A stretch of 64,000 nt of DNA from Debaryomyces hansenii CBS767 (lineage: Eukaryota > Ascomycota > Pichiomycetes > Serinales > Debaryomycetaceae): positions 310,001 to 374,000 of the forward strand of contig NC_006045.2 in the NCBI RefSeq assembly GCF_000006445.2, read 5' to 3'. Below are positions 12,866 to 52,384 of the stretch, piece after piece. The notes under the pieces are model-generated. The model ran no database searches. It was not told where the DNA came from and saw nothing but the letters and a program-made list of their open reading frames with translations. Numbering within the stretch: position 1 is the first letter of the stretch; each line of letters opens with the position of its first letter. The position numbers were made by a program, and so were the translations under genes.

Positions 12866-13866
12866 ATTATAATCTTAACTGTACTAATTAAAGCACACGA
12901 CCTTTAAAAACGAACGAAATAAAGTTGAATAGTAACCAGCCTGAATAGATATCTAACTTGAGAATTGATGCTAATCTCAAGAATTATAATCTTAATTACC
13001 TCAAAATCAACTAAGGAAAGGGAAAGGAATATGTAGCCTACTTAATTTTCGAATTAAGATGCTGGCGATGGCTAATATTTAAATAAGTTATGAGACTAAG
13101 AGAACAAGGTACAATGTAATTCTAAACACTATTATAGCTGGCCACGTTACTCAATAAATATAGACAATAGTCGTTCAGCAATCGTACTACGATCGATACT
13201 ATTTGTTTATAGGTCAATATTGCAGCCAACGTGGGCATCATTTACTCGATTAAGTAAGCAGAATTCATTAGTTTATCCGTAAACCATGCGACCATCGCCC
13301 GATATCTAAGCCCTATCATTTTGGTCTTCAGGAGCAATATACAGTATAGACAATGATTAATAAAGGATAGGCCCAATTAGGACTTTTATGTAGGGTTTGA
13401 TAAGAACTTCATAGCTGAATAGTACATATGACAGGCTGGAGTACAATAAAAAGAGAGATGATGTACGAGAATGTTGCACCCATACTCACAGCACGAGAAT
13501 AATAATTCACGACGATTTATTTGTAGGCTAAGTCTGAAAGAACGTAACGAGATATATTACTCACACGGCACACAACGAAGAACTTGCGGGTGCTACGTAT
13601 ACGAAAAAAGAGTATTTTTGTACCTAAATTTAGACAAATTCCTAAATTTAGATAAAGTAGAAGTAGGGTGTAGTTAAAGCCGTAGTTTATGCAGAACGGT
13701 GTGAGATGATGAAATTAATTTTTCGATAAAACTTAAAGATCCTTATTTATTTTTGTTGACAAGTTATGGTGACTATCGGAGTATGGAGTATTGGTTGACC
13801 GTATAAAAAAAAAGCACTACATAAGACGTGCGCCAGTGCTATATTGTGTCAAAAAAAGAATAGAAA
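12866..13866. other. Gene-poor stretch left of tRNA-Asn
   Basis: About 1 kb between the MNN1-like gene start and the tRNA. Only short, unconvincing frames occur. I see no transposon remnant or further tRNA. The left part must hold the MNN1-like promoter. Confidence 0.5.
13851..13857 (-). terminator. Pol III terminator of tRNA-Asn
   Basis: A run of seven A on the plus strand reads as TTTTTTT on the tRNA strand, starting 10 bases after the tRNA 3' end. Confidence 0.8.
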
Positions 13867-13940
13867 CGACCTCGGTGAGGGTCGAACTCACGATCTTGAG
13901 ATTAACAGTCTCACGCCTTAGCCAACTTGGCCACGAAGTC
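13867..13940 (-). tRNA. tRNA-Asn(GUU)
   Basis: The 74-base cloverleaf on the minus strand has no intron. The acceptor is GACTTCG pairing with CGAGGTC (one G-U). The D arm is GCC...GGC and the anticodon stem is TGAGA/TCTCA. The loop CTGTTAA has anticodon GTT. The T arm is GTGAG-TTCGACC-CTCAC and the discriminator is G. A T7 terminator follows. Confidence 0.95.
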
Positions 13941-14844
13941 ATATTTCTGGGCGACAAAATTGACTCGAACATGTCATGTTTTGTTGCGATTTTGGATATT
14001 AATCTTAAACCACTACAAACCCAATTCGCAACTAAGACTAAGGCTAAGACTTACATTTCTTGTCTATTTGAAATAGACCTCAATACTAGCTCCTGGTGGG
14101 ACTTGGAACTACTATCATATGATGACGCGTCTTGCGAGTGCTACGAGAATATACGTCGGCCGCCTCATGAAATGAGATTGAGCGGTTTTGGGGGAGGTGG
14201 AGCAGATGCGGCACGCCTGATCTAGTAACAATAGGGTCTTTTCAAGACCTCACAACAATCACTTTGTATAAATAATTCGCTTCGCCTTTTGTTCGCCTAA
14301 CCCCCAACGTTGTTTCGAAACGTATAGCTTACCTGTTGCGCGTGTTCATTCAAACCTTCTAATAAGTAACACCTATTGGTAAGGTGGGCTTCCTCGGGTT
14401 GTTTCGACTCTGTCACGGCCTGTTATCGGGTTTATTCTCCCATCAGCTGATTTTCTGCTCTAAAGAAGTCTTATTGTCTTCTTTACATGAAAATATTTCT
14501 ACATTCAGAATAAGTTGTGAAAGGGCTCAGATAAAGTTTTACACAATTTGCATCGCGCGCATATATACGGGAAGAAGATCAAACTACTACAGTGGCCGTT
14601 TTCACCCGGTACTACACTTATTGAACTGTACTAAATGAGTGTTTGATTAAAAACCAAGAATTAAATCCAATGGTACTTGGAATAAATAAATAATAAATAG
14701 GTAAAATAAATAATAAATAACAGTATACTCAGTATACCTCTATCAAGTGTACTAATAAAAAAGTAGTACTAGTAAATATGTGAAGATAGAACATCAATTC
14801 ACCGACCTGCGACATAGAACTAAAAGAACGTAGCATTCCTGTGC
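13941..14844. other. Gene-poor stretch right of tRNA-Asn
   Basis: About 900 bases. The middle part (13960-14640) is somewhat more GC-rich than the flanks but holds no frame I would call a gene. At 14681-14720 there is an A/T-rich AATAAATA-type simple repeat. Just after it, at 14720-14737, is a direct repeat of CAGTATAC. Nothing else is recognised. Confidence 0.5.
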
Positions 14845-16678: not shown

Positions 16679-16764
16679 GCCTGGCTAGCTCAATCGGTAG
16701 AGCGTTTGACTCTTATACAAGAGTAGCTATCAAAAGGTTGCGGGTTCGATCCCCGCGTCGGGTT
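16679..16764 (+). tRNA. tRNA-Lys(CUU) with a 13-base intron
   Basis: The 86-base gene folds as a cloverleaf. The acceptor GCCTGGC pairs with GTCGGGT through several G-U pairs. The D arm is GCTC...GAGC, the anticodon stem TTTGA/TCAAA, and the T arm GCGGG-TTCGATC-CCCGC. The loop is CT-CTT-A, then a 13-base intron at 16716-16728, then A38. That is the standard position, one base 3' of the anticodon. Anticodon CTT reads the Lys AAG codon. The discriminator is T, and a T8 terminator follows at 16771-16778. Confidence 0.92.
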
Positions 16765-17064
16765 CTTTAATTTTTTTTCTAATTTTTAATGTCAGAAGTA
16801 TACGAGTCAGTTGAAGCAGGTTTACCGTAAGAGATTGTAAATCCAAATTTCAAGATTAACTACAACAGATATGATGGAAGGATATACAATAGGTCTTCAT
16901 CCATACTCTGAACTTCAACATTGATACAGATTTTATGTATTTTTTGTACTATATTAGAGCTATATCTGAGTCATTAGGATTCAGCCGCAGAGCTGTTCGA
17001 AAAATGTTCTGGGAACGAGTCAATGCTTTAGATTTTATAGTTTTTTTTATACTAGATATCCATA
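16765..17064. other. Intergenic, tRNA-Lys terminator and permease promoter
   Basis: Begins with the T8 Pol III terminator (16771-16778). The rest is AT-rich with a T9 run just before the permease start at 17065. No further element is recognised. Confidence 0.5.
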
Positions 17065-24505: not shown

Positions 24506-26179
24506 ATGGGATTCGCAGATAAAATTCAAAATAAGTTCAATAAGAAGGACATTGAAAACTACGACAAGCAAGGTGGTAAGATCATCGGTAAAGACAACCT
24601 TTCCGGTAACTTAGACAAGGACTCAATTGCTGCATACGCTGACCAAGCTGATAAGAAGGGAGGTCAAGTACTTGGCCGTGAAAACTTATCCGGTACCGAA
24701 GGTGGTATTGGAAGCAAATATGCTGGAGGCAAATCTGGCGATGCTGCTGGCTCATCAGGAGCCGCAGGTAGTTCAGGCCACGGTAAGGAAGCAGCAGCAG
24801 GCACAGCAGGAGCAGCCGGTGTAGGAGCAGCAGGTGCTGGTGCTTATGGTGCTTCTCATGGCTCCTCTGGTAAGGATGCATATGGTTCTAGTGGCCAAGG
24901 CTCTTCTGGAGCTCACGGAACTTCAGGAAGTGATGCTTACGGTTCTAGTGGCCATGGTGCTTCAGGAAGAGATGCCTACGGTTCCTCTGGTGCTGGTACC
25001 ACCTCAGGTAGAGATGCTCACGGTTCTTCTGGTGCTGGTACTTCTGGTACTACTTCAGGTAAAGATGCTTACGGCTCGTCTGGTGCTGGTACTTCTGGTA
25101 ATACTTCTGGCAGAGATGCTTACGGCTCGTCTGGCGCTGGTACTTCAGGTACTACTTCAGGTAAAGATGCTTATGGCTCCTCTGGTGCTGGTACTTCCGG
25201 TACTACTTCAGGTAGGGATGCTCACGGCTCTTCTGGTAACGATGCCTATGGTTCTTCTAATACTCACGGTTCTAGTGGCCACGGATCTTCTGGTAGAGAT
25301 GCTTATGGTTCTTCCGCTCAAGGTTCAGGATCTGGATCTCATATCAAGGAAGCTGCTGCTGGCGCTGCTGGTGCTGCCGGTCTCGGTGGTGCCGCATATG
25401 GTGCTTCTAAGCACGGTTCTTCTAACACCGATACCTACGGCTCCAGTGGCCAAGGTTCTTCTGGCAGAGATGCTTACGGTTCCTCTGGTTCTCACGGTGC
25501 ATCTGGTACCACCTCAGGTAGGGATGCTTACGGTTCTTCTGGTGCTGGTACTTCTGGTACTACTTCCGGCAGAGATGCTTACGGCTCGTCTGCTGCTGGT
25601 ACCTCTGGTACTACTTCAGGTAGAGATGCTTACGGATCCTCTGGTTCCCACGGTGCATCTGGTACAACCTCAGGTAGAGATGCTTACGGTTCTTCTGGTG
25701 CTGGTACTTCTGGTACTACTTCCGGTAGAGACGCTTACGGTTCTTCTGGTGCTGGTACTTCTGGTACTACTTCCGGTAGAGACGCTTATGGCACTTCAGG
25801 AACTCACAGTTCATCCGCTAGAGATACTTACGGATCTTCAGGCAGCGATGCTTATGGATCTAACACCCACAGCTCAGGCTCCCACGGTAAGGAAGTTGGT
25901 GCTGGTGCCGCCGGTGCTGGTCTTGGTGGTGCTGCAGGATATGGTGCTTCTAAGCACGGATCTTCCAACACTGACTCCTACGGTCAATCAGGAAGCTCTG
26001 GTTACGATCAACAAGGTAAGAGCGCTGGATCTGGTTCCGGATCTGGTCTCGGTGGTTTCAGCACTGGTAATGACAAGCTTGATTCCAAGATTGCTTCTTT
26101 AGATGAACCAGTTCAAGAACAAGCTAAGGAAGCTTTCCACAAGGGTTACAAGGATGCTCAAAGCGCCTTCCGTGGTTAA
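24506..26179 (+). CDS. Repetitive Gly/Ser-rich hydrophilin-like protein
   Basis: The 557-aa, very hydrophilic protein has no signal peptide or membrane helix. Residues 1-65 hold two diverged copies of a DKxGGxxxGxxNLSG motif. Residues 119-455 are built from about twenty units with the core (R/K)DAYGSSG, many as a 17-residue unit SGRDAYGSSGAGTSGTT. Three Ala/Gly modules (around 94, 280 and 460) each start with a Lys-Glu pair and give a higher-order repeat. The C-terminal 35 residues form a charged amphipathic helix. Preferred codons (GGT, GCT, TCT, AAG) match those of RPL1 here, implying strong expression. Composition and upstream stress elements suggest a desiccation or osmostress protectant, but I recognise no named family. 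Confidence 0.75.
   Translation: MGFADKIQNKFNKKDIENYDKQGGKIIGKDNLSGNLDKDSIAAYADQADKKGGQVLGRENLSGTEGGIGSKYAGGKSGDAAGSSGAAGSSGHGKEAAAGTAGAAGVGAAGAGAYGASHGSSGKDAYGSSGQGSSGAHGTSGSDAYGSSGHGASGRDAYGSSGAGTTSGRDAHGSSGAGTSGTTSGKDAYGSSGAGTSGNTSGRDAYGSSGAGTSGTTSGKDAYGSSGAGTSGTTSGRDAHGSSGNDAYGSSNTHGSSGHGSSGRDAYGSSAQGSGSGSHIKEAAAGAAGAAGLGGAAYGASKHGSSNTDTYGSSGQGSSGRDAYGSSGSHGASGTTSGRDAYGSSGAGTSGTTSGRDAYGSSAAGTSGTTSGRDAYGSSGSHGASGTTSGRDAYGSSGAGTSGTTSGRDAYGSSGAGTSGTTSGRDAYGTSGTHSSSARDTYGSSGSDAYGSNTHSSGSHGKEVGAGAAGAGLGGAAGYGASKHGSSNTDSYGQSGSSGYDQQGKSAGSGSGSGLGGFSTGNDKLDSKIASLDEPVQEQAKEAFHKGYKDAQSAFRG
24860..25870 (+). repeat. Coding tandem repeat, mainly 51-base units
   Basis: This part of the gene encodes the DAYGSS-type repeats. 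The commonest period is 51 bases (17 codons), with shorter and longer variants. All units keep the frame. Such an array is prone to length change by slippage or unequal crossing-over. Confidence 0.85.
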
Positions 26180-44768: not shown

Positions 44769-46677
<1,909 letters not shown>

Positions 46678-48600
46678 TCACTCAAAACCACCCTTGTTAT
46701 TCCTAAAAATAAATTCCAATTCTGACAAATCTGTTTTCTTATTCATGTAATCTGTGGACTCATTTTCTAAAACGGAATTTGCAAAATCAATGATGAATAT
46801 TTTGCCGTTCTTAGTGTATAGGATATTAGCATCCCGTATGTCTCCATGAACGATTCCATTACGATGTATGATTTCCAATTGCTTTTTAGCCTTCATGTAC
46901 GTTTCGTTATCTCGTGGCATAGGAACGGTATCGATAAATTTGAACAAATTAAATCTTCCCTGGGCTAGATAATATTTGTCAACGGTGACTTTGAGGTATC
47001 CTCTTCTATGGGGCACGTAACAACTATTGAATTCTGGATCGTTGGCTAATACCTCGCAAAAACTCCTCTCAGAATTATAGTTTTCGAGGCATTGTTCCAT
47101 CACTTCTTCACGGCTGGATATGTATTTATCATGGACTCTGTTCGCCATTATAGGATCATATATTTTTGCGACCAATTTCTGCTTATCGTCCATTGGACAA
47201 AGCAAATACTTTTTCACGTAATAAGAATCAAACTTCACTATCTGTGAACTATAAACATCCCCTTTTTGCATGTATACATCCTCGGTCTCATCAAGATCTA
47301 CTTGTTGTTCTTCTCCTATTTCTTCTTCTACGACAGAAGCCAAAGGTTCAGATATATTTGTTTCTCTTGTGCTCGGGCGACTGCCGAATGAGCTTTCAGT
47401 TGGGTCACTACTATACCCCACGGACAGGAGTTCCTCTTCATATTCTTTAGGCGTATTACGCAAATATTTTTTAAAAACTAGCATTCTTTCCTGCTTAAGT
47501 TTTAAAGCATCGTCATCAACAATAGCCTTGAAGAAAAAGTGCATTAGTCCTTCTCGTAACGTAGGTGCAGAAGATAGACAATTTAACACTCTGTACCTGA
47601 GTGGTATAACTTTGTCTCCTTTAGAAGGCACAAATTTTTGCCTATACTTATCAAAATAATCAAGATCTATCTCCACTAAAATAGCATCATATGCATCTGT
47701 GAGAACTCCCATATTTGTCTTATAATATACCATCTGAACAATTAGTTGCCTCATAAAGTCAGGAATTTTATTTTGGCTCAAAATATCTGCTGTTATTCCA
47801 GTACTTTCGCTGTCGTAATTCGATAGTATAGGGAAATTCTTAACCTCTATTGCACAAAAGACATCAAAGCCCCTTACAATCAATATATCAGACCAAACAT
47901 GATATTTTACATTACCTGGAGAACCAATAACATATTTGACTTCTGCATCCAATGTAAATGTTATATCCAATAACGTGCATATTGGTTCCACTAAATAATC
48001 CTTAAATTCCAGTCTGTAGGTAAGTTCTCTGTCGTTTCTTTGACTAAGCAACTTATAATCGTGAAACGCAAAACCCTGAAGGCCGTCAACTAGATTCTCG
48101 ATAGTTGACGATGTTATTATAGTATTAATTGTATTCAATATCTCGTCGTCACCAATTTTGGAAAAACAATCACCATTATATTTGAATTTAGAAAGACTCT
48201 TGTCAAACATATTGCATGATGGGGAACCACTGCTAGTAGACTGACGGGTTTTTTGGATTTCATATTCAAGCATGGGAAGCGCTAGAATGAAGCGTAAAAA
48301 TTTCTTTGCAGAGTTATTTTCCATCAAGATTTCTTGAGAACAAACCAACCTATTGTATTTCAACCTATATTTTCTCCTCAGAATGAATGCTTTTAGTTCA
48401 TTTTCATCAACTTTGAATAATTCCCGGATGATTGTTTCATAATCTAATATGGACAGATTCCATGTGGAGTAGAAATCTAGATACTTATAAGTGTCAGTAA
48501 TTTCTCTATCAATGCATTTTTCTGTTGCTTGATATAAGGGGTGTTGCAATAAGAGAGAACCAATACTAATTGAAGAATTCATGATTAAAAATTCATTCAT
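46678..48600 (-). CDS. SPOK-like nuclease-kinase protein, copy 1
   Basis: The 640-aa protein is in one exon from the ATG at 48600. Residues 1-220 are a helical region of unknown fold. Residues 221-310 look like a PD-(D/E)xK nuclease core: HVWSDILIVRG (Asp238), then FCAIEVKNF (Glu252-Val-Lys254), then a Gln-containing helix. Residues 405-450 are an acidic linker. Residues 455-640 are kinase-like, with beta-3 Lys479 (VAKIYDP), catalytic HGD (585-587) plus Asn592 in HGDIRDANILY, and DFA (605-607) where kinases have DFG. Only 33 residues follow DFA, so most of the usual C-lobe is absent. Nuclease followed by kinase is the order of Podospora SPOK spore killers and of REase-kinase Crinkler-type effectors. 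Function is inferred, not shown. No break is seen. Confidence 0.75.
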   Translation of the reverse strand: MNEFLIMNSSISIGSLLLQHPLYQATEKCIDREITDTYKYLDFYSTWNLSILDYETIIRELFKVDENELKAFILRRKYRLKYNRLVCSQEILMENNSAKKFLRFILALPMLEYEIQKTRQSTSSGSPSCNMFDKSLSKFKYNGDCFSKIGDDEILNTINTIITSSTIENLVDGLQGFAFHDYKLLSQRNDRELTYRLEFKDYLVEPICTLLDITFTLDAEVKYVIGSPGNVKYHVWSDILIVRGFDVFCAIEVKNFPILSNYDSESTGITADILSQNKIPDFMRQLIVQMVYYKTNMGVLTDAYDAILVEIDLDYFDKYRQKFVPSKGDKVIPLRYRVLNCLSSAPTLREGLMHFFFKAIVDDDALKLKQERMLVFKKYLRNTPKEYEEELLSVGYSSDPTESSFGSRPSTRETNISEPLASVVEEEIGEEQQVDLDETEDVYMQKGDVYSSQIVKFDSYYVKKYLLCPMDDKQKLVAKIYDPIMANRVHDKYISSREEVMEQCLENYNSERSFCEVLANDPEFNSCYVPHRRGYLKVTVDKYYLAQGRFNLFKFIDTVPMPRDNETYMKAKKQLEIIHRNGIVHGDIRDANILYTKNGKIFIIDFANSVLENESTDYMNKKTDLSELEFIFRNNKGGFE

Positions 48601-49618
48601 GAAAAATGAATAGACCTGGCATTTATTGTTTAATTGAATTTGAAGGATATTTATACTTATTTTTATTCTGCAACATCAGAAATGTGATATGCTTCTCGTA
48701 TCATATATGTTTCGCTGGCACGGTCGTAAAGATATCATTAAATCCTGTTACAATTATATAATATTGGAAGATAATATTACCAAACAAGTCGCATATGCCA
48801 TTATATCTTATTTTATAGAGGCATATGAAACACCATCAAATTAGCTATTTGTTGCTCTTTGTAACCGGAAACTTGAAACACTTCAAACAACATAATCTTA
48901 GTACTCGTAAATAAATAAAGTGCCGATTTTCATCTTTGCCATCGACAGCATAGCTAAAGAAATTCCGGCCGGGCTAGAATGAATTCATGATAACCAATAT
49001 GTGTTTACGATTAGCGTACCAGTTTTGGGTGGTATGATGGGTTTGTGTCACTATCAAAAAGTAACCAGAGAATACATTCTTAATACGTATAGTAACTTAC
49101 ATTACTTGTATATTATCATATTAACTCAATAGCTACTATTATGTTAAGCCCTTTTATAAGTTGTATAATAAGCATCGCCATTTTTCATATACAAATTTAT
49201 GTTACCAGACTCTACTTTGTCATTTACCCCACCTTGTTAGCTTTCACTGTTGTTAACATTTCTGCAACTACTTGCCTGATGAATTTATTCATCTTACAAC
49301 TGTAATCTCTGTCATTTTTTTAAAGATCAAAACGGGGTAAATTTTTGAATTCAAGTAAAGCAAAACTCTGATAGTATACTTTCCAGCATGCTACCATATC
49401 TGGATAAGAGTTAAATAAATCTTTAGATTGCGGCTATACCTTTGTATACATCGATCAAAAACTAATAAGTTAGCGATATTGATATTGGAAAAAATCTTTG
49501 CAAGTGAGACAAGAGGATGATGATAATAATGTCGAATCTTCAAGGACGAAGGACATATATCCTTTTCAAGACCATGCCAATGATCTCGCCTATTCGTCAT
49601 TACGATCTATAGGCATAC
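48601..49618. other. Between the two nuclease-kinase genes
   Basis: This 1.02 kb has three parts. From 48601 to about 49065 it is the upstream flank of copy 1, homologous to that of copy 2 but with about 140 extra bases near 48720-48860. About 49080-49380 is single-copy spacer. From about 49380 it is the downstream flank of copy 2. A 20-base word at 49042-49061 recurs at 63484. No other gene is seen. Confidence 0.6.
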
Positions 49619-51541
49619 TCACTCAAAACCACCCTTGTTATTCCTAAAAATAAATTCCAATTCTGACAAATCTGTTTTCTTCTTCATGTAATCTGTGGAC
49701 TCATTTTGTAAAACGGAATTTGCAAAATCAATGATGAATATTTTGCCGTCCTTAGTGTATAGGATATTAGCATCTCGTATGTCTCCATGAACGATTCCAT
49801 TACGATGTATGATTTCCAATTGCTTCTTAGCCTTCATGTACGTTTTTGTATCTCGTGGCATAGGAACGGTATCGATAAATTTGAACAAATTAAATCTTCC
49901 CTGGGCTAGATAATATTTGTCAACGGTGACTTTGAGGTATCCTCTTCTATGGGGCACGTAACAACTATTGAATTCTGGATCGTTGGCTAATACCTCGCAA
50001 AAACTCCTCTCAGAATTATAGTTTTCGAGGCATTGTTCCATCACTTCTTCACGGCTGGATATGTATTTATCATGGACTCTGTTCGCCATTATAGGATCAT
50101 ATATTTTTGCGACCAATTTCTGCTTATCGTCCATTGGACAAAGCAAATACTTTTTCACGTAATAAGAATCAAACTTCACTATCTGTGAACTATAAACATC
50201 CCCTTTTTGCATGTATACATCCTCGGTCTCATCAAGATCTACTTGTTGTTCTTCTCCTATTTCTTCTTCTACGACAGAAGCCAAAGGTTCAGACATATTT
50301 GTTTCTCTTGTGCTTGGGCGACTGCCGAATGAGCTTTCAGTTGGGTCACTACTATACCCCACGGACAGGAGTTCCTCTTCATATTCTTTAGGCGTATTAC
50401 GCAAATATTTTTTAAAAACTAGCATTCTTTCCTGCTTAAGTTTTAAAGCATCGTCATCAACAATAGCCTTGAAGAAAAAGTGCATTAGCCCTTCTCGTAA
50501 CGTAGGTGCAGAAGATAGACAATTTAACACTCTGTACCTGAGTGGTATAACCTTGGCTCCTTTAGAAGGCACAAAATTTTGCCTATACTTATCAAAATAA
50601 TCAAGATCTATTTCCACTAAAATAGCATCATATGCATCTGTGAGAACTCCCATATTTGTCTTATAATATACCATCTGAACAATTAGTTGCCTCATAAAGT
50701 CAGGAATTTTATTCTGGCTCAAAATATCTGCTGTTATTCCAGTACTTTCGCTGTCGTAATTCGATAGTATAGGGAAATTCTTAACCTCTATTGCACAAAA
50801 GACATCAAAGCCCCTTACAATCAATATATCAGACCAAACATGATATTTTACATTACCTGGAGAACCAATAACATATTTGACTTCTGCATCTAATGCAAAT
50901 GTTTTAACCAATAACATGCATATTGGTTCCACTAAATACTCTTTAAATTCCAGTTTGTAGGTAAGTTCTCTGTCGTTTCTTTGACTAAGCAACTTATAAT
51001 CGTGAAACGCAAAGCGCTGAAGGCCCTTAACTAACTTTTCGACCGTGGATGATGTTATTATAGTTTGAATTGTATTCAATATCTCGTCGTCACCAATTTT
51101 GGAAAAACAATCACCATTATATTTGAATTTAGAAAGACTTTTGTCAAACATATTGCATGATGGGGAACCACTGCTAGTAGACTGACGGGTTTTTTGGATT
51201 TCATATTCAAGCATGGGAAGCGCTAGAATGAAGCGTAAAAATTTCTTTGCAGAATTATTTTCCATCAAGATTTCTTGAGAACAAACCAACTTATTGTATT
51301 TCATCCCATGATCACCTTCTAGAATGAATGCTTTTAGTTCATTTTCATCTACTTTGAATAGCTCCCGGATGATTGTTTCATAATCTAATATGGACAGATT
51401 CCATGTAGAGTAGAAATCTAGATACTTATAAGTATCAGTAATTTCTCTATCAATGCATTTTTCTGTTGCTTGATATAAGGGGTGTTGCAATAAGAGAGAA
51501 CCAATACTGATTGAAGAATTCATGATTAAAAATTCATTCAT
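49619..51541 (-). CDS. SPOK-like nuclease-kinase protein, copy 2
   Basis: The 640-aa protein starts at the ATG at 51541; the reading frame upstream continues only from a TTG. It differs from copy 1 at about 26 residues (96% identity). Eighteen of these fall in residues 75-220, before the nuclease core. There are no differences from 221 to 320, so Asp238, Glu252 and Lys254 are kept. Kinase motifs Lys479, HGD 585-587, Asn592 and DFA 605-607 are also unchanged. Both copies are full-length and open, so neither is decaying. The gene is in the same orientation as copy 1 with similar flanks. What was said of the family applies equally here. Confidence 0.75.
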   Translation of the reverse strand: MNEFLIMNSSISIGSLLLQHPLYQATEKCIDREITDTYKYLDFYSTWNLSILDYETIIRELFKVDENELKAFILEGDHGMKYNKLVCSQEILMENNSAKKFLRFILALPMLEYEIQKTRQSTSSGSPSCNMFDKSLSKFKYNGDCFSKIGDDEILNTIQTIITSSTVEKLVKGLQRFAFHDYKLLSQRNDRELTYKLEFKEYLVEPICMLLVKTFALDAEVKYVIGSPGNVKYHVWSDILIVRGFDVFCAIEVKNFPILSNYDSESTGITADILSQNKIPDFMRQLIVQMVYYKTNMGVLTDAYDAILVEIDLDYFDKYRQNFVPSKGAKVIPLRYRVLNCLSSAPTLREGLMHFFFKAIVDDDALKLKQERMLVFKKYLRNTPKEYEEELLSVGYSSDPTESSFGSRPSTRETNMSEPLASVVEEEIGEEQQVDLDETEDVYMQKGDVYSSQIVKFDSYYVKKYLLCPMDDKQKLVAKIYDPIMANRVHDKYISSREEVMEQCLENYNSERSFCEVLANDPEFNSCYVPHRRGYLKVTVDKYYLAQGRFNLFKFIDTVPMPRDTKTYMKAKKQLEIIHRNGIVHGDIRDANILYTKDGKIFIIDFANSVLQNESTDYMKKKTDLSELEFIFRNNKGGFE

Positions 51542-52384
51542 GAAAAATGAATAGACCTGGCGTTTATTGTTCAATTGAATTTGAAGGATATTTATATTTA
51601 TTTTTATTCTGCAGCATCAGAAATGTGATATGCTACTCGTATCATATTTGTTTCGCTGGCAAGGGTCATTGTAAACTGGAGACTTGAATCAATTCAAGCA
51701 AGATAATCTCAGTTCTTGTAAATTAATGAATACCAATTTTATATCTGCCATTGACAACGAAGCTAAAGATATTCCAGCTGGTCTAACTTTGAATTAATGT
51801 ATGATAACCAATATGTGTATATGGTTATTGTACTCGACTTGGGCTTTTATCACCAGTTTTGTGTCACTATGGAAAATGATACTTATTACTACTAGTAATG
51901 GTGAATGGAGAATGATCTGAGGTATATGAACCAGTCGAGCATATTAATAAGGCTCGTATGCTTAAATACGAAATGAGCTTGTATCATGTCGTTACCAGTA
52001 AATAAAATATGGACTATCGCAATTATTGATAAGAAAATTCACTCATAATATGCTTGATTGATGTATCAGCTAGTATGACTTATCGTGGGTGGTAGATTAA
52101 GAATTATTTCCTCTGTTTTTTGGCCGCACTCACAGTCCTCGTCCCAATAATACAGTTCTTTATCGACATCTCAGAATCTACATCATAGGGTCATATTAGA
52201 CTAGTACTAAATTATGTATTAGATAGAAATGAATGGAGTAATATACATAGAAAAATAAAACATTATACGAACTCAATTTAGTACAGTTTAAACTCTAAAG
52301 AGTTGTAATAGCATAGGAAATTCCAAAGTAGGTTATTGTGTCCAAAACAGAATTTGAAAATAAATCTATGAGTAGTGGAAACAA
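51542..52384. other. Upstream flank of copy 2 and WHI5/NRM1-like 3' side
   Basis: These 843 bases match the flank of copy 1 to about 51870, including GTGTCACTAT at 51861. Beyond that the sequence is single-copy and AT-rich, with no gene recognised. Confidence 0.5.

What the first reader, a model, noticed from the sequence alone, without database searches (positions are those of the whole stretch)
46678..51541. Tandem pair of SPOK-like nuclease-kinase genes in a budding yeast: candidate killer/resistance locus
Seen: two full-length 640-aa proteins. Each has an Asp238...Glu252-x-Lys254 pattern typical of PD-(D/E)xK nucleases and a C-terminal kinase-like segment (Lys479, HGD...N, DFA). Known: Podospora SPOK meiotic drivers have this order, with the nuclease linked to killing and the kinase-like part to resistance; Crinkler-type REase-kinase effectors share it. 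Inferred: this accessory duplicated locus between MAP2 and a WHI5/NRM1-like gene may be a single-protein toxin-antidote system in yeast, possibly undescribed in this lineage.
Basis: partly seen in the sequence, partly recalled or inferred. Interest (0 to 1): 0.87.

Follow-up and report, generated by a model that had tools for sequence, protein, structure and literature searches.

The report
Candidate yeast nuclease-kinase self-poison gene family
The two neighbouring yeast genes belong to a large, fast-changing family of proteins that join a probable DNA-cutting domain to a kinase-like domain, the same layout as known fungal 'poison plus antidote' genes, but their function has not been tested.

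Summary
In detail: two 640-codon genes (46678-48600, 49619-51541, minus strand), 96% identical, with E192...D238...E252-x-K254...Q285 and a C-terminal kinase-like domain (K479, E511, HGD587, N592, D605). The pair is one locus of a family with 19 open, near-full-length frames in this genome (12.18 Mb; size and code fit Debaryomyces hansenii). A related kinase tail is fused to a second PD-(D/E)xK-like segment (Pfam DUF3698) in about 20 more genes. 23 of these 39 lie within 65 kb of a contig end. One copy goes the other way (kinase Asp lost, nuclease residues kept). This resembles SPOK-type toxin/antidote genes, but SPOK membership is not shown: the Cys/His cluster needed for SPOK3 resistance is absent from 31 of 31 proteins, and no SPOK sequence or other yeast genome could be compared. 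The nuclease fold is unproven (AlphaFold pLDDT 34). Killing and drive are untested.

The parts
46678..48600 (-). first nuclease-kinase gene, 640 aa (P0001)
49619..51541 (-). second nuclease-kinase gene, 640 aa (P0002), 96% identical to the first
47671..48027 (-). predicted nuclease core of P0001, residues 192-310 (D238 at 47887-47889; E252-x-K254 at 47839-47847)
   Evidence: invariant E192, D238, E252, K254, Q285 in seven divergent paralogs; fold not proven
50612..50968 (-). predicted nuclease core of P0002, residues 192-310 (D238 at 50828-50830; E252-x-K254 at 50780-50788)
   Evidence: as above
46741..47268 (-). kinase-like domain of P0001, residues 445-620 (K479, E511, H585-x-D587, N592, D605)
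   Evidence: RIO1 over the Pfam cut-off, Pkinase just below it
49682..50209 (-). kinase-like domain of P0002, residues 445-620
48331..48459 (-). divergence patch 1 of P0001, residues 48-90
47926..48138 (-). divergence patch 2 of P0001, residues 155-225, just before the nuclease Asp
51272..51400 (-). divergence patch 1 of P0002, residues 48-90
50867..51079 (-). divergence patch 2 of P0002, residues 155-225
46664..48723 (.). homogenised core of the tandem unit, copy 1 (97% identical to copy 2)
   Evidence: blastn, 2061 columns, 97.04%
49605..51664 (.). homogenised core of the tandem unit, copy 2
46289..46519 (.). 3' flank of copy 1, 83% identical to 49377-49603
49377..49603 (.). 3' flank of copy 2, 83% identical to 46289-46519
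48856..49060 (.). 5' flank of copy 1, 75% identical to 51666-51876
51666..51876 (.). 5' flank of copy 2, 75% identical to 48856-49060

Best explanation
The two genes are gene-converted tandem copies in a large, rapidly turning-over family of single-protein nuclease-kinase conflict genes that work like SPOK proteins. The central domain is a PD-(D/E)xK-type nuclease that damages DNA (or another nucleic acid). The C-terminal Bud32/RIO-like kinase restrains it by phosphorylating the protein itself, a paralog or a shared target, so that cells with a working copy survive and cells without it can be harmed. The N-terminal and pre-nuclease segments would set which copies recognise each other, which would explain why close copies differ mainly there. 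Shown here: genes, architecture, family size, residue conservation, loss of nuclease residues with kinase residues kept in two copies, gene conversion, patchy divergence. Inferred: nuclease fold and activity, restraint by the kinase, specificity role of the patches, self versus non-self killing. Whether the advantage is gained at meiosis, in hybrids or by punishing loss of chromosome ends is open.
For: Nuclease-then-kinase order with E-D-ExK-Q invariant among divergent paralogs. Kinase residues K, E, H, N, D in 19 of 19 and the catalytic Asp in 18 of 19 family-A proteins. A second lineage carries P-D...D-x-K inside DUF3698 before a related kinase tail, so the pairing occurs twice. Two nuclease-dead copies, one in each lineage, keep the kinase residues; in C3:910k the nuclease core has diverged most (45-49% against 71-83% among three relatives) while the kinase (59-62%) is about as similar as theirs (62-70%). 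Expansion, relics and concentration near contig ends. Gene conversion of coding parts but not flanks. Divergence concentrated in the same patches in 12 of 12 other family-A pairs. SPOK3 uses the nuclease for killing and the kinase for resistance (PMC6660238 section 18).
Against: No nuclease fold shown: no Pfam or PDB nuclease match and AlphaFold pLDDT 33.9. The SPOK Cys/His cluster is absent from 31 of 31. C5:584k keeps nuclease residues but lacks the kinase catalytic Asp, which should be toxic unless silent or protected. In C3:910k the linker has also diverged (36-42% against 55-81%), and the N-terminal, pre-nuclease and post-nuclease parts somewhat, as expected for an outgroup. Conserved catalytic sites do not guarantee activity: four of six Fusarium Spok homologs had no effect in yeast (PMC12693581 section 17). 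No meiosis-type promoter-site enrichment. Positive selection in the patches is not shown.
Confidence: 0.5

Rival explanations
1. An ordinary host enzyme family: the nuclease-like and kinase-like domains do some non-conflict nucleic-acid processing or stress task, and the expansion is ordinary subtelomeric and tandem amplification.
For: dN/dS is well below 1 outside the patches (0.16-0.38 over 13 family-A pairs). The species is rich in tandem arrays (4.4% of genes; PMC2822764 passages).
Against: Loss of nuclease residues with kinase residues kept in both lineages, two nuclease-like segments paired with one kinase type, and many broken copies fit conflict genes better.
Confidence: 0.22
2. Defence rather than selfishness: the proteins protect the yeast against linear plasmids, mycoviruses or transposons; the kinase senses or gates the nuclease, which destroys invading nucleic acid or kills the infected cell.
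For: Kinase tails give weak matches to kinases of phage-defence systems (PD-T4-6 best E 1.5e-7, mad6 1e-6 for P0002), but these matches cover only the general kinase core. Two of 19 members match AbiJ N-terminal domain 4 weakly (best E 0.0077). Diversifying families at chromosome ends are common for defence genes (general knowledge).
Against: No defence partner gene sought or seen beside the window pair; the PADLOC matches are what any kinase would give; no sequence-level relative in viral, bacterial or archaeal contigs.
Confidence: 0.18
3. The nuclease-like motif is a coincidence or an inactive relic, and the genes are atypical kinases with an unrelated N-terminal domain.
For: No nuclease family or PDB nuclease match for family A, low-confidence model, and A and B/C nuclease regions do not align by profile (11% probability).
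Against: The triad is kept in 18 of 19 A and 11 of 12 aligned B/C proteins while most other charged residues vary; strand and helix order in the (unreliable) model fits.
Confidence: 0.1

Closest known systems
SPOK proteins (Spok1-4) of Podospora and FuSpoks of Fusarium
   Same: Middle PD-(D/E)XK-type nuclease with a later Gln motif, C-terminal eukaryotic-like (Kdo/Bud32-type) kinase, multi-copy, patchy evolution, pseudogenes, nuclease-mutant alleles that keep resistance (PMC6660238 sections 17-19; FuSpoks PMC12693581)
   Different: No C-x3-C-x13-C-x5-H-x7-H cluster (0 of 31); about 640 aa with the kinase at 445-640, against 539-700 in SPOK3; many more loci here; no sequence comparison with SPOK was possible; no killing shown
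Pfam DUF3698 (PF12479)
   Same: The sister lineage B/C matches it in 12 of 12 aligned proteins; it covers the P-D...D-x-K segment and is followed by a kinase tail related to that of the window genes
   Different: 0 of 19 family-A proteins, the window pair included, match it at E <= 1; the nuclease-like regions do not align by profile
Crinkler-type REase-kinase effectors (Zhang et al. 2016, known from a citation in PMC12693581 and from recall, not read)
   Same: Nuclease domain joined to a kinase domain
   Different: Secreted effectors in the cited cases; no secretion signal was tested here; no sequence comparison made
tdk-like (IPR013902) candidate drivers of D. hansenii
   Same: Multi-copy, often pseudogenised candidate killer genes in the same species, nine proteins (preprint PMC12930445 section 13)
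   Different: Different protein by that paper's description (Z-shaped N-terminal domain plus IPR013902); no nuclease or kinase is mentioned in that section

Membership tests
SPOK family | Nuclease domain before a C-terminal kinase domain in one protein | tested here: met
   Order met by motif conservation and Pfam/NCBIfam kinase matches; the nuclease assignment rests on motifs only
SPOK family | PD-(D/E)XK catalytic residues | tested here: met
   D238, E252, K254 in 18 of 19 family-A proteins; E192 and Q285 in 19 of 19
SPOK family | PD-(D/E)XK fold | tested here: inconclusive
   AlphaFold on window sequence alone, pLDDT 33.9; no Pfam or PDB nuclease match
SPOK family | Cys/His cluster C-x3-C-x13-C-x5-H-x7-H upstream of the kinase, needed for SPOK3 resistance | tested here: not met
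   Exact pattern and a looser C-x2..5-C-x8..20-C pattern: 0 of 31 proteins
SPOK family | Eukaryotic-like (Kdo-type) rather than typical protein kinase | tested here: met
   RIO1 over the Pfam cut-off; Bud32 and Kdo kinase are the best NCBIfam matches, all far below the curated cut-offs
SPOK family | Sequence homology to SPOK proteins | not tested
   No SPOK sequence held; protein database off
SPOK family | Killing of cells without the gene and resistance of carriers | not testable with these tools
   Needs expression and crosses
SPOK family | N-terminal coiled-coil repeat of variable length and an intron in the 5' UTR | not tested
   No coiled-coil predictor was run; the upstream sequence was read but no intron test was made
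Pfam DUF3698 | Match over the Pfam cut-off | tested here: not met
   0 of 19 family-A proteins match at E <= 1; 12 of 12 sister-lineage proteins match
tdk / IPR013902 | IPR013902 domain | not tested
   InterPro was not available; Pfam gave kinase families as the only recurrent matches

The most novel reading that the evidence does not exclude
A budding yeast carries about 39 single-protein nuclease-kinase toxin/antidote genes from two nuclease lineages that share one type of kinase antidote. They are diversified by gene conversion around swappable recognition segments, and antidote-only derivatives have evolved separately in both lineages: a budding-yeast counterpart to the fission yeast wtf genes, and an independent or very ancient relative of SPOK outside filamentous fungi.
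Probability: 0.33. Interest if true: 0.88.

Novelty: new variant of a known kind. Interest (0 to 1): 0.68.

Why it matters
If right, it would extend SPOK-like single-protein poison/antidote genes to budding yeasts, in a species where another candidate killer family (tdk-like) has already been proposed. It offers natural alleles that separate nuclease from kinase, so the open question of how one protein both harms and protects becomes directly testable. It would also suggest a function for the uncharacterised DUF3698 family and could help explain chromosome-end turnover and hybrid problems in Debaryomyces.

Tried and rejected
An isolated accessory pair: rejected, 19 + about 20 open frames in the genome. 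Relatives in viral contigs and in bacterial and archaeal genomes: none confirmed for family A or B/C. Nuclease-region profiles against PDB: no nuclease; only PLK4 kinase chains (E 0.38-0.41) and nitrogenase chains (E 0.45-0.65). Nuclease regions of A and B/C against each other: 11% probability, so common descent of the two nuclease segments is not claimed. Structure prediction with window sequences only: both jobs failed in confidence, so no fold search was run. Meiosis-type promoter site (consensus recalled): 0.51 per kb upstream of 27 family genes against 0.33 per kb upstream of 20 other window genes, from few sites; not taken as enrichment. No tRNA lies near the pair; the two of the window are at 13866-13941 and 16679-16765. 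Literature: DUF3698 in 0 papers; no paper on these genes was recognised in the listings (open PMC papers only; most hits seen only as title and start of abstract).

Papers and what I saw: PMC6660238 sections 17, 18, 19 and passages; PMC9972908 passages; PMC12930445 section 13 and passages; PMC12693581 section 17 and passages; PMC3482391, PMC2822764 and PMC5499181 passages only. Zhang et al. 2016 ('Transposons to toxins') was not read. Coiled coils, signal peptides and 5' UTR introns were not tested.
Full report
What is in the window. Two open frames of 640 codons lie at 46678-48600 and 49619-51541, both on the minus strand. The window is part of a 12,181,948-base genome in 8 contigs. With CTG read as serine, 4 and 3 residues change, none catalytic. 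The proteins are 96% identical.

The locus is a tandem duplication whose coding part has been homogenised. The cores (46664-48723 and 49605-51664) are 97% identical over 2061 columns with 2 gaps, while the duplicated flanks are only 83% (46289-46519) and 75% (48856-49060) identical, with more indels. Silent divergence in the genes (dS 0.072) is well below flank divergence, which points to gene conversion rather than a recent duplication.

It is not an isolated pair. A search of the genome with the first protein gave 70 matches. By my count from that table and, 19 genes have an open frame that covers most of the protein (family A), and about a dozen further places hold fragments or stop-containing pieces. 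A tree of the 19 shows an internal group, to which the window pair belongs (sister to C6:1105k plus C6:1216k), and a group at chromosome ends plus C4:757k. The window pair, C4:1069k/1071k and C3:912k/915k are each other's closest relatives, while C3:910k, next to the last pair, is more distant. The weaker matches, over the kinase only, led to a second lineage, B/C, which carries Pfam DUF3698 (12 of 12 aligned proteins). A DUF3698 search gave 38 matches in the genome, about 20 of them separate genes with open frames of 593-666 codons, and none in 14 control genomes. Within 65 kb of a contig end lie 8 of 19 A and 15 of 20 B/C genes, against about 7.5% of the genome in 14 such ends (positions, lengths; the 65 kb limit was chosen after seeing the data).

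Kinase part. It matches RIO1 over the Pfam cut-off in both window proteins and Pkinase just below it; all 19 members match both at E <= 1. The best NCBIfam matches of P0002 are Bud32 and Kdo kinases, far below their cut-offs. The family profile finds kinase chains in the PDB (best E about 1e-6; the 60 rows shown are kinases). K479, E511, H585, N592, D605 and F606 are present in 19 of 19; D587 in 18 of 19, the exception being C5:584k with Asn. The A and B/C kinase tails are related (hhalign 97.3%, E 1.9e-11).

Nuclease part. No Pfam family or PDB sequence identifies it in family A. The evidence is conservation: in positions 155-310, 21 of 156 residues are invariant in seven divergent paralogs; of the 43 D/E/K/Q/H/R residues there, the seven invariant ones are E192, D238, E252, K254, Q285, D302 and E310. 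The first five match the 'E, D, ExK, Q' signature given for some restriction-endonuclease-fold toxins in PMC3482391 (passages) and the SPOK3 description of a PD-(D/E)XK motif followed by a Gln motif (PMC6660238 section 17); the Tyr of SPOK's QxxxY was not tested. The group at chromosome ends reads P-D at the Asp. In B/C, P189-D190...D213-x-K215 lies within or beside the DUF3698 match and is kept in 11 of 12 aligned proteins; three more B/C copies read but not aligned also keep it. The single-sequence AlphaFold model has strands and helices in the right order (helix 198-214, strands 219-226, 239-244 and 247-253, helix 281-295), but at pLDDT 33.9 it is not evidence of a fold. The kinase model was equally poor.

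Evidence from natural variation. Two copies have lost nuclease residues and kept the listed kinase residues: C3:910k (D, E and K all changed) in family A and C6:1753k (the P-D Asp and the Lys changed) in B/C. C3:910k was compared with three of its five closest relatives. Its nuclease core is 45-49% identical to them, and they are 71-83% identical to each other there; its kinase (59-62%) is about as similar as theirs (62-70%). Other parts are lower too, as expected for an outgroup: N-terminal 58-60 against 63-72, pre-nuclease 46-51 against 58-66, post-nuclease 68-72 against 81-90, linker 36-42 against 55-81. So the kinase has held while the nuclease core and the linker have drifted most. For C6:1753k the trend is weaker (nuclease core 27-37% against 40-52%). 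One copy goes the other way: C5:584k keeps the nuclease residues but has the kinase Asp to Asn change and a shorter tail. In SPOK3 a mutant of that Asp is toxic unless an intact copy is present (section 18); here paralogs could protect, or the gene may be silent. I count this against the simple model.

Patches. Between the window copies, differences pile up at residues 48-90 and 155-225. Using these limits on 12 other family-A pairs, dS and dN are both higher inside than outside in 12 of 12; circular shifts reach the observed count in 7 of 629 to 70 of 588 positions (13 of 640 for the window pair, from which the limits were taken). In B/C, the segment at the same distance before the nuclease Asp is more divergent in 8 of 8 pairs (shifts 14 of 621 to 174 of 642). 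Several pairs share genes and single pairs are often not significant. dN/dS inside is higher than outside in 12 of 13 A pairs and 7 of 8 B/C pairs, but exceeds 1 in only one pair (1.16), so positive selection is not shown. The best reading is gene conversion that spares, or imports, these segments; that they set specificity is an inference.

What it works like, and what it is. Domain order, kinase type, nuclease-dead derivatives, copy number and gene conversion are SPOK-like. Spok3 and two Fusarium relatives are toxic in S. cerevisiae when the kinase Asp is changed, although four of six Fusarium genes tested had no effect (PMC12693581 section 17 and passages), so architecture alone does not guarantee activity. 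SPOK1 acts through DNA damage in E. coli and yeast (PMC9972908 passages). Against membership: the Cys/His cluster, whose mutation makes SPOK3 toxic in a way an intact copy suppresses, is absent from 31 of 31 proteins. I therefore file this as SPOK-like in working, not as a SPOK. For the same species, nine tdk-like proteins have been put forward as possible drivers in a preprint (PMC12930445 section 13), which makes a driver-rich genome plausible but concerns different proteins.

Limits. One genome only, so neither polymorphism nor 'accessory' status could be tested. The protein database was off. A better structure prediction, with paralogs, was not attempted because the tool's list of allowed sources does not name the loci I had. 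Overall: a real, large nuclease-kinase-like family with several marks of genetic conflict; the toxin/antidote mechanism at about even odds; meiotic drive specifically less certain, perhaps 0.3.

Noticed in passing
L040, L042, L041, L043, L044, L036, L034, L032/L033 (chromosome-end loci): Family-A and DUF3698 genes often sit within a few kb of each other at chromosome ends, in both convergent and divergent order, for example C3:6671-14188 with B, A and C in a row.
   Followed up: partly
L031 (C1:81787-84728): Relics: a kinase-tail piece 78% identical in DNA to the window genes, next to a stop-containing copy on the other strand.
   Followed up: no
window 48601-48723 and 51542-51664: About 120 bases upstream of both genes, with a TATAAATA box, are as conserved as the coding part, then similarity drops sharply.
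   Followed up: no
window 24506-26179: A 557-aa open frame with no Pfam match at E <= 0.001, overlapped by a second 418-aa frame on the same strand at 24846-26102.
   Followed up: no
L029:2305-4083 (C5:583804-585582): A family-A copy with intact nuclease residues but Asn in place of the kinase catalytic Asp and a shortened tail.
   Followed up: partly
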